From Xanthomonas hyacinthi (lineage in GTDB: Bacteria > Pseudomonadota > Gammaproteobacteria > Xanthomonadales > Xanthomonadaceae), in assembly GCF_009769165.1 (NCBI RefSeq), contig NZ_CP043476.1, positions 1,674,001 through 1,738,000 on the forward strand: a stretch of 64,000 nucleotides of DNA. The letters are read 5' to 3'. Below are positions 3,692 through 7,059 of the stretch, one piece after another; the first letter of the stretch is position 1; every line of letters starts with the position of its first letter. A program made the translations under genes and the position numbers. The notes below the pieces were generated by a model, which saw nothing but the letters and a program-made list of their open reading frames with translations, was not told the origin of the DNA and ran no database searches.

Positions 3692-3781
3692 CGCGCCTGG
3701 CGCAACGCGCGGCGGCGGCACGGTCGGCGGCGGCGATACTTTGGTATAGGCGCGCGATACGCATGGCCATGAAAAAAAGCC

Positions 3782-3815: not shown

Positions 3816-4014
3816 CAAGCTTTTCCGCGTCGCGAAGCTGCAGCCCGGCCACCGCGGCAAGACCCCGTGCGTCCCCCCTTCCGCCCGCGTTGACGGTGTG
3901 CGGATGCCGTGTCTTGTTGCAGCGCCGACGCTGCCGCTGCGTCCACGCTCGCGAGGCCTGCGTCCGTCGCCGACGCCGCAACCGCGCATGTTCCGCCCTC
4001 ATCAGGAGACCGCC

Positions 4015-4125
4015 ATGGACCCCGACCCGCATCTGCGTGGCGCCATCGCCACGCTCTCGCCTGCGCTGTCCTTTTCACGCTTGCCCGGTCCCGCCCCGGA
4101 GACGTCCACCCATCCGCAAGGTTGA
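4015..4125 (+). CDS. Candidate Mg2+-sensing leader peptide (MgtL-like, MDPDP start)
   Basis: A 36-residue reading frame with a good ribosome binding site (AGGAGA, six bases before ATG) that begins MDPDPHLRGA and is otherwise rich in Pro and Ser. Known biology: the E. coli/Salmonella MgtL leader starts MEPDP, and alternating acidic-proline N termini destabilise the translating ribosome when Mg2+ is low, switching on mgtA. Here the peptide ends six bases before a perfect hairpin (4132-4154) whose 3' arm covers the next ribosome binding site, and the operon encodes an MgtC-family protein. A regulatory rather than structural role is inferred from this arrangement. Translation has not been shown. 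Confidence 0.7.
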   Translation: MDPDPHLRGAIATLSPALSFSRLPGPAPETSTHPQG

Positions 4126-4131
4126 GGCGTC

Positions 4132-4154
4132 CCTTCCGGCAGCGCGCCGGAAGG
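4132..4154 (+). promoter_or_regulatory. Hairpin pairing with the ribosome binding site of the next gene
   Basis: CCTTCCGGC (4132-4140) and GCCGGAAGG (4146-4154) form a perfect 9-bp stem with a 5-base loop. The 3' arm overlaps the Shine-Dalgarno run AAGGAGG (4151-4157) of the gene starting at 4163. TTTT at 4158-4161 also gives it an intrinsic-terminator look. A ribosome finishing or failing on the upstream leader could decide whether this stem forms. Confidence 0.7.
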
Positions 4155-4162
4155 AGGTTTTC

Positions 4163-4594
4163 ATGCTGCTGTACACGTCCCGTTTCCAACGCGCCCTGCA
4201 ACGCGCCCTGCGCGCGGCGGTGACCGCGCATCGCGCCGACATCCTGTGCCATCTGCTCGCCGCGCATGGCGTGCGCGCCTGCGCCAAGGCCCTGTCCCAC
4301 TTTCCCGGGCGCGTGCTGGCCGATGCGCTGTCGCTGCTGCCCGGCGAGGACCGCATCCGCGTCCTGCTGCGTTTGTCGCGGTCGGCGCGGCGGCGCCTGC
4401 AACGGCCGGGCACGGGCGCCCCGACGGCGCCGGGCTGGTGGCGCAAGGCGCTGGGCAGGTGGGGCGGATTCGACACGGCGCTGCTGCGACGCGCGCTTGC
4501 CACGCAGCTGCAGCATCATGTTCGCCCGCTACCGCCCGATCCCTCCCCAGGAATTGCGATGCCCCGTCCGCTCCGCCCCCGGTCCCCGCGCTGA
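4163..4594 (+). CDS. Small protein with MgtE N-domain-like helical repeat
   Basis: A 143-residue basic protein with a perfect Shine-Dalgarno (AAGGAGG, five bases upstream) that lies in the hairpin described above. Residues about 20-80 read as short amphipathic helices; FPGRVLADALSLLPGEDRIR (47-66) resembles the superhelical repeat of the cytoplasmic MgtE N domain, which senses Mg2+ in MgtE channels. No membrane segment is visible and the C terminus is Pro/Arg rich. Its stop overlaps the mgtC start by one base (TGATG), implying translational coupling. I do not recognise a named family; a Mg2+-related accessory role is inferred from context. Confidence 0.65.
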   Translation: MLLYTSRFQRALQRALRAAVTAHRADILCHLLAAHGVRACAKALSHFPGRVLADALSLLPGEDRIRVLLRLSRSARRRLQRPGTGAPTAPGWWRKALGRWGGFDTALLRRALATQLQHHVRPLPPDPSPGIAMPRPLRPRSPR

Positions 4595-5322
4595 TGGAAG
4601 CGCTGCGCCTGTTCAATCTTGCCTCGCTGCTCGACACCCTGGTGAGCCTGTCCACCGCCTTCGCCCTGGGCGCGGTCATCGGCTTCGAGCGGCAGGTGCG
4701 GCAGCGCACCGCGGGCCTGCGCACCAACACCCTGGTCGCGGTCGGCGCGGCCATCTTCGTCTCGCTCGGCGACCGCCTGTTCGAGATCCATGGCGGCCCC
4801 CAGGGCGCGGTGCAGGTGGTGGCCTACGTGGTCTCCGGCATCGGCTTCCTCGGTGCCGGCGCGATCATGAAGGAAGGCGCCAACATCACCGGGCTCAACA
4901 CCGCGGCCACGCTGTGGGGGTCGGGCGCGGTCGGCGCCTGCGCCGGCGCCGGGCTGGTCGCCGAGGCGGTGCTGGCGGCGCTGTTCGTGCTGTTGAGCAA
5001 CACCTTGCTGCGCCCGGTGGTGAACCGGATCAACCGCCGGCCGCTGGAGGAATCCTCGATCGAGGCAACCTACGTGTTCTACGTGATCTGCGCCCGCGGC
5101 GTGCACGGCGAGGTGCGCGAACGGCTGATCGAACTGCTGGAAGCCGCCCACTACCCGGCGCGCGAAGTGGACCAGCATCCGTTCGGCCAGCACGATGTGG
5201 AAATCGCCGCCACGCTGTACGCGACCGCGGTGCGCGCCGAAGAGCTGGATACGGTGATCCAGCAGTTGGAAGGCGAGCCCGGTGTACAACAGGCGTTCTG
5301 GAACGCTGGCGCCGAGGGCTGA
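4594..5322 (+). CDS. mgtC: MgtC/SapB family membrane protein
   Basis: A 242-residue MgtC-family protein. The N-terminal part has four to five membrane segments with the hallmarks GAVIGFERQVRQRTAGLRTN, GIGFLGAGAIMKEG and GLNTAATLWGSGAVGA. After NRRPLEES a soluble ACT-like C-terminal domain of about 80 residues follows, as in Salmonella MgtC. The family is induced by low Mg2+ and in pathogens modulates F1Fo ATP synthase and growth in magnesium-poor niches. It is the last gene of the leader/small protein/mgtC unit and starts within the preceding stop codon. The next gene begins 34 bases downstream, so cotranscription with the two-component pair is possible. Confidence 0.92.
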   Translation: MEALRLFNLASLLDTLVSLSTAFALGAVIGFERQVRQRTAGLRTNTLVAVGAAIFVSLGDRLFEIHGGPQGAVQVVAYVVSGIGFLGAGAIMKEGANITGLNTAATLWGSGAVGACAGAGLVAEAVLAALFVLLSNTLLRPVVNRINRRPLEESSIEATYVFYVICARGVHGEVRERLIELLEAAHYPAREVDQHPFGQHDVEIAATLYATAVRAEELDTVIQQLEGEPGVQQAFWNAGAEG

Positions 5323-5356: not shown

Positions 5357-6439
5357 ATGACCGCGATGACCCGCTGCTTCAAATCGCCTTCGCCGCATCG
5401 CCGCCTGCTCGCGCTGGCGGCGCTGCTGCTGGCGCTGGGCGCGATCTTCGTCGCCGATACGCTGACCGATTACGCGGTGGCCGCCGCGTTGTTCTACACG
5501 GTGGTGATCCTGTTCGCGGTGCGGCTGCTCACCCGCGCGGGCATGCTGTTGCTCGCCGGCGCCTGCATTGCCCTGATCGTGCTCAGCTTCCAGCTCAGCT
5601 CCGCCGGCGCGTACCGGGTGGGGGTGATCAACTCGGTCATCAGCATCGTGGTGGTGGCGGTGACCACCTCCATCGCGGTGCAGATGGAACATGCCAAGGC
5701 CGCCGCGCACGCGGCGCAGGCGCAGCTGCTGCGGCTGGCGCGCGCGCGCAGCCTGGGCGGCCTGACCGCCTCGATCGCGCACGAGGTCAACCAGCCGCTG
5801 GCCGCCATCGTCACCAGCGGCAACGCCTGCCAGCGCTGGCTCGGCCAGCAGCCGCCGAACCTGGAGCGGGCGCACGCGGCGCTGCAGCGGATCCTCGACG
5901 ACGGCAACCGCGCCAGCGAGGTGATCGCGCGGATCCGCAGCCTCAGCAAGGGCGAGGCGCCGCGCAAGAGCGCGTTCGACCTCAATGCCGCGGTGCTGGA
6001 GGTGCTGGCGCTGGCGCGCAGCGAACTGGAGCACAACGCCATCGCGCTGCGGATGGCGCTGGCCCCGGCATTGCCGCTGGTGCTGGCCGACCGGGTGCAG
6101 GTCCAGCAGGTGCTGGTCAATCTGTTGTTGAACGCGATGGAGGCGATGGCGCGCACGCCCGCGCAGGCGCGCGAGATCCTGATCGGCACCGCGCCGGAGG
6201 ATGCGCGTTCGCTGCGGCTGACCGTGGCCGATTGCGGCGGCGGCCTGTCGGCCGAGGCGCAGGCGCACCTGTTCGACGCGTTCTGGACCACCAAGCCCGA
6301 CGGCATCGGCATCGGCCTGAGCATCAGTCGCAGCATCGTCGAGGCCAGCGGCGGGCGCATCTGGGCAGCGCCGCGCAGCCCCTGCGGCGCGGTGTTCGGC
6401 GTGTGCCTGCCGATCGCAAAGCCAGGCGCGCGCCAATGA
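5357..6439 (+). CDS. Membrane sensor histidine kinase (FixL/NtrB-type core)
   Basis: A 360-residue kinase. Residues 14-107 contain four hydrophobic segments with almost no periplasmic loop, so the signal is probably sensed in or near the membrane. The dimerisation box SLGGLTASIAHEVNQPLAAI carries His142. The ATPase domain has the N box NLLLNAMEAM, the G1 box VADCGGGL and GIGIGLSISRSIVEASGG. The AHEVNQPLAA form of the H box is typical of FixL/DctB-type kinases that pair with FixJ-type regulators, as here. The stop overlaps the start of the response regulator (ATGA). A start at 5282 is possible but adds a low-complexity Pro/Ala stretch. Confidence 0.9.
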   Translation: MTAMTRCFKSPSPHRRLLALAALLLALGAIFVADTLTDYAVAAALFYTVVILFAVRLLTRAGMLLLAGACIALIVLSFQLSSAGAYRVGVINSVISIVVVAVTTSIAVQMEHAKAAAHAAQAQLLRLARARSLGGLTASIAHEVNQPLAAIVTSGNACQRWLGQQPPNLERAHAALQRILDDGNRASEVIARIRSLSKGEAPRKSAFDLNAAVLEVLALARSELEHNAIALRMALAPALPLVLADRVQVQQVLVNLLLNAMEAMARTPAQAREILIGTAPEDARSLRLTVADCGGGLSAEAQAHLFDAFWTTKPDGIGIGLSISRSIVEASGGRIWAAPRSPCGAVFGVCLPIAKPGARQ

Positions 6440-7059
6440 ACCTGCCCGTGTCCGAACGCTGCCCGGTGGTGTACCTGATCGACGACGATCCCTCGATCCG
6501 CGCCGCGCTGGAAGACCTGTTCGCCTCGGTCGACCTGCAGGTGCATGCGTTCGGCTCCAGCGGCGAGTTCCTGCAGCACGCGCTGGCCGACGCGCCCAGC
6601 TGCATGGTGCTGGACATCCGCATGCCCGGGCAGAGCGGCATGGAATTCCACCGGCAGCTGCTGGAGGCCGGGCTGAACCTGCCGACCATCTTCATCACCG
6701 GCCATGGCGACATCGCGATGAGCGTGGAAGCGATGAAGAACGGCGCGATCGAATTCCTGACCAAGCCGTTCCGCGACCAGGACCTGCTCGACGCGATCCA
6801 GCACGGCATCGCCTGCGACCGCGCGCGCCGCCAGCGCGAGGCCGTGCTGGCCGAACTGCGCGGCCGCTGGGCGACGCTGACCGCGGGCGAGCAGGAGGTG
6901 ACCCGGCTGGTGGTGCAGGGGCTGTTGAACAAGCAGGTCGCCGCGCGGCTGCAGCTCAGCGAAATCACGGTGAAGGTGCGGCGCAGCCAGGCGATGCGCA
7001 AGATGCAGGCCGGCTCGCTCGCCGAACTGGTGCGGCTGGCCGCGCGGATCGGACTGTAG
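6436..7059 (+). CDS. FixJ/NarL-type response regulator
   Basis: A 207-residue regulator with an N-terminal receiver domain: acidic pocket IDDDPS, phospho-acceptor Asp60 in VLDIRMPG, switch threonine in FITGHGD and Lys110 in FLTKPF. The C-terminal LuxR-type helix-turn-helix (about 140-205) shows LTAGEQEVTRLVVQGLLNKQ and LSEITVKVRRSQAMRKM. It overlaps the kinase gene by four bases, so the pair is translationally coupled and forms one phosphorelay. Targets are unknown; the neighbours are mgtC upstream and an amino acid permease 149 bases downstream. Confidence 0.92.
   Translation: MNLPVSERCPVVYLIDDDPSIRAALEDLFASVDLQVHAFGSSGEFLQHALADAPSCMVLDIRMPGQSGMEFHRQLLEAGLNLPTIFITGHGDIAMSVEAMKNGAIEFLTKPFRDQDLLDAIQHGIACDRARRQREAVLAELRGRWATLTAGEQEVTRLVVQGLLNKQVAARLQLSEITVKVRRSQAMRKMQAGSLAELVRLAARIGL

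What the first reader, a model, noticed from the sequence alone, without database searches (positions are those of the whole stretch)
4015..5322. MDPDP leader peptide and RBS-pairing hairpin ahead of an mgtC unit
Seen: a 36-codon frame with a good ribosome binding site begins MDPDP. Its stop is six bases before a perfect 9-bp hairpin whose 3' arm overlaps AAGGAGG of the next gene. That gene and mgtC overlap by one base. Known: MgtL (MEPDP...) senses low Mg2+ through ribosome destabilisation at acidic-proline N termini. Inference: this is a xanthomonad version in which premature drop-off at MDPDP, or ribosome arrival at the leader stop, decides whether the hairpin hides the Shine-Dalgarno or acts as a terminator. 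The regulated genes would be mgtC and a small MgtE-N-like protein instead of mgtA.
Basis: partly seen in the sequence, partly recalled or inferred. Interest (0 to 1): 0.85.

Follow-up and report, generated by a model that had tools for sequence, protein, structure and literature searches.

The report
MDPDP leader peptides before magnesium transporters
A tiny reading frame that begins Met-Asp-Pro-Asp-Pro, followed by a hairpin that can hide the next gene's start signal, sits in front of several kinds of magnesium-transport genes in Xanthomonas relatives and in Comamonas-type bacteria, and probably lets the ribosome itself act as the magnesium gauge that switches those genes.

Summary
Observation confirmed: 36-codon MDPDP leader (4015-4125), stop six bases before a perfect 9-bp stem overlapping AAGGAGG, then a 143-aa gene (orfX) overlapping mgtC by one base. 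Not chance: 14 of 14 stand-alone orfX genes found in 196 Xanthomonadaceae genomes have an M[DN]PDP frame just upstream, as do 12 of 17 found in 299 genomes of a Comamonas-containing family (MDPxP-like). A context-blind SD+MDPDP search gave 32 short frames in those two families: 25 precede mgtA/mgtC/mgtE operons, 2 Nramp genes, 3 RND adaptors, 2 nothing relevant. Beyond MDPxP the peptide is hardly conserved. SD-hiding stems after the stop are stronger than shuffles (23 groups, Fisher p 5e-8). Late-leader sequence can pair with the stem's 5' arm (an mgtQ-like 2:3 versus 3:4 switch): significant over groups (p 5e-5), not in the window's own clade. Best reading: an MgtL/mgtQ-type ribosome-destabilisation leader acting on translation, used as a portable module. 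Mg2+ response and its sign are inferred. The terminator alternative is disfavoured. orfX resembles the MgtE N domain. A second small frame, orfW, precedes many leaders. Nine literature searches found no account of this family.

The parts
4004..4008 (+). Shine-Dalgarno AGGAG of the leader frame
   Evidence: sequence; GGAG kept in most relatives
4015..4125 (+). 36-codon leader frame, MDPDPHLRGAIATLSPALSFSRLPGPAPETSTHPQG, stop 4123-4125
   Evidence: relatives
4015..4029 (+). MDPDP codons, the conserved part of the peptide and proposed site of ribosome drop-off or pausing
   Evidence: function inferred from MgtL/mgtQ (PMC11282234, PMC8092293)
4096..4107 (+). candidate anti-sequestor (region 2), CCGGAGACGTCC, able to pair with 4126-4139
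   Evidence: NOT better than shuffles or swapped leaders in this clade
4132..4140 (+). 5' arm of the SD-hiding stem (region 3)
4146..4154 (+). 3' arm of the stem (region 4), overlapping the SD
4151..4157 (+). Shine-Dalgarno AAGGAGG of orfX
   Evidence: sequence
4163..4594 (+). orfX, 143 aa, small helical protein like the MgtE N domain / FliG middle domain
4594..5322 (+). mgtC, 242 aa, Pfam MgtC and MgtC_SapB_C

Best explanation
The frame at 4015-4125 is a cis-acting leader peptide of the MgtL/mgtQ kind that controls translation of orfX, and through the one-base overlap mgtC. Shown: frame, stem, their conservation and their magnesium-transport context. Inferred: when Mg2+ is plentiful, ribosomes get through MDPDP and run to the stop; there they cover or insulate the late-leader sequence (region 2), so the 5' arm (3) pairs with the SD (4) and the operon is quiet. 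When Mg2+ is scarce, the acidic-proline start makes ribosomes pause and drop off; region 2 stays bare and can pair with 3 as the RNA emerges, leaving the SD free, so orfX and mgtC are made. The same module has been placed in front of mgtA, mgtE, Nramp and RND-adaptor genes. In the window's own clade the last switching step is the least certain: the 2:3 pairing exists but is no better than chance there.
For: Leader kept with orfX in 14 of 14 Xanthomonadaceae loci and 12 of 17 loci of the Comamonas-containing family. Context-blind pattern search: 30 of 32 short frames precede cation-transport or RND-adaptor genes (families checked by profile for representatives). Synonymous third positions vary while MDPxP stays, and GTG start, MDPEP, MDSDP and MNPDP occur, so the peptide is selected. 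SD-hiding stems stronger than shuffles over 23 groups (Fisher p 5e-8 for SD pairing, 2e-10 for energy), with unrelated stem sequences in different genera. Late leader pairs with the 5' arm better than swapped leaders over 23 groups (KS p 5e-5) and better than shuffles in 14 of 48 loci; in 13 of those 14 the segment ends 5-19 nt before the end of the stop codon, where a finishing ribosome would sit. In truncated transcripts a ribosome at the stop lowers upstream pairing of the 5' arm from 0.68 to 0.18 in the window's clade and 0.56 to 0.23 in Comamonas. Freeing the SD costs 6.1 kcal/mol in the window, 2.9-4.3 in L133, L161, L164. mgtQ (PMC8092293) and MgtL (PMC11282234) show both halves of the logic by experiment.
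Against: No expression or Mg2+ data. In the window's clade the 2:3 pairing is not better than shuffled (p 0.48) or swapped leaders (0.42-0.77 of other leaders as good). In 6 of 23 groups a ribosome at the stop raises instead of lowers upstream pairing of the 5' arm; the mean over 48 loci falls only from 0.75 to 0.60. In the full-length fold the SD stays hidden in every masked state on average (0.20-0.21). MDPVP and MDPYP leaders lack the second acidic residue. Five of 17 orfX loci in the Comamonas-containing family show no MDPxP frame. The mgtC of X. albilineans and GPE39 has neither leader nor orfX beside it.
Confidence: 0.55

Rival explanations
1. Translational coupling with the opposite sign: ribosomes finishing the leader stand beside the stem and help ribosomes onto the hidden SD, so complete translation of the leader turns orfX-mgtC on and drop-off at MDPDP turns it down.
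For: The SD is hidden in the unoccupied RNA (mean chance unpaired 0.21 over 49 loci). Stop-to-start distance is short and narrow, 37-70 nt in 49 loci. In the window a ribosome at the stop raises SD access a little, 0.18 to 0.34.
Against: Would lower Mg2+ importers when Mg2+ is scarce. Does not explain late-leader complementarity to the 5' arm in many groups. Stems mostly start 6-20 nt beyond the stop, at or beyond the edge of a terminating ribosome (footprint size is recalled).
Confidence: 0.2
2. The leader senses something other than Mg2+ through Asp-Pro or Pro codons: charged tRNA-Pro, EF-P, or general translation stress, as mgtP does in Salmonella.
For: P3 and P5 are the most constant residues besides D2 (22 and 23 of 23 groups), MDPVPP... 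leaders are proline-rich, and PMC8092293 (Discussion) says mgtP answers to charged tRNA-Pro.
Against: Later prolines are not conserved; downstream genes share Mg2+ transport, not proline metabolism.
Confidence: 0.15
3. The frame and stem are real but act at transcription (Rho or terminator), with the SD overlap secondary, as in the E. coli mgtA leader.
For: MgtL acts through Rho (passages of PMC11282234). Rho sites cannot be seen by these tools.
Against: No run of T after the stem in relatives; the stem tracks the SD in unrelated sequences.
Confidence: 0.15
4. Chance frame and chance stem in GC-rich DNA.
For: GC-rich DNA forms stems easily; whole-region fold z -0.13; the reversed control pattern has 14 hits against 17 in the Comamonas-containing family (my count of its table).
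Against: Context and conservation: 30 of 32 short frames, 14 of 14 orfX loci.
Confidence: 0.02

Closest known systems
mgtQ, Salmonella mgtC-mgtB intergenic uORF (PMC8092293)
   Same: Short frame with acidic residues at the start, SD-hiding stem on the next gene, alternative pairing that frees it, control at translation, Mg2+ transport operon.
   Different: mgtQ has 8 codons (Asp2, Glu5, Pro4), lies between mgtC and mgtB; here 16-57 codons, MDPxP, at the head of the operon and before several transporter families; segment 2 lies late in the leader.
MgtL, E. coli/Salmonella mgtA leader (PMC11282234 passages; Chadani 2017 recalled, not held)
   Same: EPDP versus DPDP at codons 2-5; proposed drop-off at low Mg2+; Mg2+ importer downstream.
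   Different: MgtL works through Rho-dependent termination; here the obvious target is the SD. No sequence relation beyond the motif.
mgtM/mgtP tandem leaders of Salmonella mgtCBR (PMC3641672, listing only; function from PMC8092293 Discussion)
   Same: Tandem short frames before an mgtC operon; in the Comamonas-containing family orfW plus MDPDP also stand in tandem.
   Different: mgtM and mgtP sense ATP and charged tRNA-Pro and act on transcription; peptides unrelated.
M-box with uORF in M. tuberculosis (PMC12810186, outline and abstract)
   Same: RNA-level Mg2+ control of a translational platform upstream of a Mg2+-stress operon.
   Different: Uses a metal-binding riboswitch; no Rfam match here.
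MgtE N domain (Pfam MgtE_N) for orfX
   Same: MgtE_N hits in 14 of 23 family members, best E 1.9e-5; profile hit to MgtE 2yvx E 0.0032.
   Different: Stand-alone, no CBS or membrane domain; window protein itself below Pfam's cut-off.

Membership tests
Ribosome-destabilisation leader (MgtL/mgtQ kind) | Short translated-looking frame with SD and acidic/proline residues at its start | tested here: met
Ribosome-destabilisation leader (MgtL/mgtQ kind) | Mg2+ transport gene downstream | tested here: met
   mgtC in the window; mgtA, mgtE, mgtC, Nramp in relatives
Ribosome-destabilisation leader (MgtL/mgtQ kind) | Two mutually exclusive RNA structures, one hiding the SD | tested here: inconclusive
   SD stem met; alternative 2:3 significant over groups but not in the window's clade
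Ribosome-destabilisation leader (MgtL/mgtQ kind) | Drop-off at low Mg2+, countered by L31 or EttA | not testable with these tools
   needs reporters or cell-free translation
MgtL itself (orthologue) | Control by Rho-dependent termination of mgtA | not testable with these tools
   none
M-box or other Rfam Mg2+ riboswitch | Match to the family's covariance model | tested here: not met
   4 matches with E up to 5, none reaching its gathering score, none a Mg2+ element
Intrinsic terminator | Stem followed by a run of T, conserved | tested here: not met
   TTTT in the window only, not kept in relatives
MgtE_N domain (orfX) | Sequence match to the domain above Pfam's cut-off | tested here: not met
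   window protein 12.2 bits against 25.9; relatives reach E 1.9e-5
MgtE_N domain (orfX) | Same fold | tested here: inconclusive

The most novel reading that the evidence does not exclude
MDPxP leaders are a portable magnesium gauge of Xanthomonadaceae and the Comamonas-containing family: a peptide-plus-stem cassette in which the ribosome's own stability at low Mg2+ is the sensor, placed independently before Mg P-type ATPases, MgtE, MgtC, magnesium-type Nramps and metal-type RND adaptors, usually working on translation, and often travelling with a stand-alone MgtE-N-like protein and, in many cases, a second leader (orfW).
Probability: 0.45. Interest if true: 0.85.

Novelty: new variant of a known kind. 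Interest (0 to 1): 0.72.

Why it matters
Ribosome-destabilisation sensing is known from enterobacterial examples (MgtL, mgtQ). A second, apparently separate family that fronts at least four kinds of transporter genes would make it a general regulatory principle and gives dozens of natural variants (MDPDP, MDPEP, MDPVP, MDPYP, MDSDP, MNPDP) to test which residues matter. It also predicts magnesium-linked function for orfX, orfW, a periplasmic-looking protein and RND adaptors of unknown role.

Tried and rejected
Terminator: rejected, no conserved T run. Rfam riboswitch: none. Thermodynamic switch in the full-length RNA by masking ribosome positions: no effect on average. Whole-leader stability: ordinary. 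Anti-sequestor in the window's clade: present but not significant. Class-wide pattern with Asp or Glu: 11 hits in 369 genomes, of which only the window's and L147's are of this kind; of the other nine, eight were looked at (three long frames, five short ones without a recognisable transport gene next to them) and L182 was not classified. Foldseek gave no strong fold match for orfX. A formal covariation count was not made: MAFFT misplaces the one-base bulge between the two Xanthomonas clades; by eye, pair 5 of the stem is C-G in one clade and G-C in the other. In L010 the stem is partly lost and in L006 its outer pairs are broken. One search aligned a wrong frame and was not used. Rows dropped before counts: folding set of 49 loci leaves out L158/L159 (no transport gene), L175 (gene 184 nt away), long-frame hits L142, L143, L167, and near duplicates (L116, L117, L126, L127, L035-L037, L067, L069, L073, L083); L169 had no arm and is missing from the 48-locus tests. 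Grouping into 23 sets was mine, by genus handle and similarity.

Full report
1. Observation. The stop-to-start stretch is more stable than shuffles, the whole leader region is not.

2. Conservation of the leader near mgtC and orfX. In the genus sample 14 of 20 genomes (own genome included) have this mgtC at E <= 1e-50; 12 of these 14 have the leader 576-608 bases upstream, eleven MDPDP and one MNPDP. The two without it (L014, L016, of which the genomes' named counterparts are GPE 39 and X. albilineans) also lack orfX there. GPE 39's genome has MDPDP-orfX elsewhere, before an RND adaptor (L157). Among 80 mgtC loci from named genomes (best 80 of 89 matches) 12 carry such a frame with an SD, including Delftia, Comamonas, Paracidovorax (MDPYP) and Lampropedia (four of the 80 hold less than 2.5 kb upstream).

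3. orfX as anchor. With an orfX profile (A3), 196 Xanthomonadaceae genomes gave 14 stand-alone orfX genes (E <= 6.4e-22); the weaker hits lie in frames of about 334-354 aa (FliG-sized) or 473-498 aa (MgtE-sized). All 14 have the leader: 13 as exact pattern hits, one MNPDP. In 299 genomes of the Comamonas-containing family 17 have orfX at E <= 1e-8; 12 have an MDPxP, VDPDP or MDSDP frame next to it; L128, L129, L131, L137 and L138 do not. Downstream of orfX stand mgtC, mgtA, mgtE, RND adaptors, or in L140 no transport gene.

4. Context-blind test. GGAG-N3-9-ATGGAYCCNGAYCCN occurs 18 times in 198 Xanthomonadaceae genomes (reversed control 3 by my count of the table) and 17 times in 250 genomes of the other family (reversed control 14), so in the latter the count alone is not above control. 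Context is what separates: three hits start long proteins (L142, L143, L167); of 32 short frames, 25 precede mgtA, mgtC or mgtE operons, 2 an Nramp, 3 an RND adaptor, 2 nothing relevant (L158, L159). Profile checks: Mg P-type ATPase TIGR01524 is the best family for four N-terminal pieces (L147, L163, L165, L168; scores below the full-length cut-off because the loci end inside the gene), TIGR00400 mgtE above cut-off for L170-L172, MgtC family for L169, RND_mfp above cut-off for L175 and L157; cation ATPase N-terminus for eight pieces and MgtE_N plus CBS for L146 and L160; Nramp for L164, HlyD_D23 for L162; the L166 Nramp is nearest the magnesium transporter EleNRMT 7qia (E 1.8e-48; next 8.5e-16; PMC8806188 passages). 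The remaining loci were assigned by likeness to these.

5. The peptide. Over one member of each of 23 groups D2 is kept 23 times, P3 22, P5 23, position 4 is D 20 times (E, V, Y once each); S6 (11) and R8 (12) are preferences; later positions scatter and lengths run 16-57. Part of this set was chosen by the pattern itself; the variants come from the orfX and mgtC anchors. Third codon positions vary freely. Selection is on the N-terminal peptide, as expected of a leader.

6. The RNA. After the stop come 37-70 nt to the next start (49 loci). Stems over the SD have unrelated sequences, e.g. GGGTTTCTC/GAGAAACCC, CGGGCTTCTTTC/GAAAGAAGCCCG, GGGCTCCGG/CCGGAGCCC. Against SD-keeping shuffles 10 of 23 groups reach p <= 0.05 for SD pairing and 11 of 23 for energy (Fisher 5e-8 and 2e-10); L168, L172, L146, L136, L132 and L010 are weak. 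Late leader against the 5' arm: 14 of 48 loci p < 0.05, 8 p < 0.01; against leaders of other groups, median rank 0.13, 8 of 23 groups <= 0.05, KS p 5e-5. In 13 of the 14 significant loci (8 of 9 groups) the segment ends 5-19 nt before the end of the stop codon. The window's clade is negative in both tests. Between the two Xanthomonas clades the CCGGA(A)GACG element and the 5' arm persist although the leader stop lies after the element in one and directly before it in the other, which argues that the element is kept as RNA. In transcripts cut before the SD, the 5' arm pairs upstream with mean 0.75 when only the start is occupied and 0.60 with a ribosome at the stop; strong falls in the window's clade (0.68 to 0.18) and Comamonas (0.56 to 0.23), rises in 6 of 23 groups. 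Keeping the SD free costs a median 6.0 kcal/mol, 6.1 in the window, and in those folds 76% of the 5' arm is paired upstream on average. So both states are plausible, with the hidden state favoured at equilibrium and the open one likely only if formed during transcription.

7. Mechanism. See Best explanation. Experiments on mgtQ (Results parts 1-2 and Discussion of PMC8092293 read) show that acidic residues lower uORF translation and free the next gene's SD through a 2:3 pairing; passages of PMC11282234 describe MgtL drop-off at EPDP when Mg2+ is limiting and pausing with Pro3 in the P site. These are precedents, not proof for this system.

8. orfX. Helical, MgtE_N in 14 of 23 members (best 1.9e-5), FliG_M in 9, MgtE 2yvx E 0.0032, model pLDDT 79.3, MgtE chains at the top of the structural list but not clearly above unrelated helical chains. 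Its frequent neighbourhood with Mg2+ transporters suggests a role in their control or stability (inferred).

9. Literature. Searches (and 75 for Nramp) over open PubMed Central papers found no description of MDPDP leaders in these families; subscription papers and preprints are mostly not covered.

Noticed in passing
L091:2034-2225 and upstream of leaders in L049, L084, L094, L130, L133, L141, L161, L163-L166, L168, L169, L173, L174, L176: A second small frame, orfW (64 aa in L091, good SD), with a conserved W-[PST]-T-[HR]-R-[ILV]-R near its C-terminus, lies 83-130 nt upstream of 17 of 49 MDPxP leaders, whatever gene follows; known only as hypothetical protein, 14 relatives found. Possibly a second leader or small regulator.
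   Followed up: partly
119-204 nt upstream of leaders in L144, L145, L147-L151, L162, L132, L135; imperfect copy in the window about 3736-3748: Inverted repeat TATACCnnGGTATA or close variants in 10 of 49 loci, never together with orfW; looks like an operator. The window copy was seen by eye only.
   Followed up: partly
L146, L160, L165, L168, L173, L174 (gene after the leader): A secreted-looking protein of about 230-260 aa with DDAA(I/V)LE/DPGQCQ-like start lies between leader and mgtA or mgtE; no Pfam family above cut-off for the two tested (L173, L146).
   Followed up: partly
L164, L166: A 44-45 codon frame follows the leader and its stem before the Nramp gene.
   Followed up: no
window about 5357-7059: A histidine kinase and a LuxR-type response regulator follow mgtC.
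   Followed up: no
L138: orfX copy interrupted by TAG; no leader found beside it.
   Followed up: no
L154-L156, L008-L013, L015, L040 versus L152, L153, L005-L007: Between two Xanthomonas clades the leader stop moved from before to after the CCGGA(A)GACG element while the element and stem stayed.
   Followed up: partly
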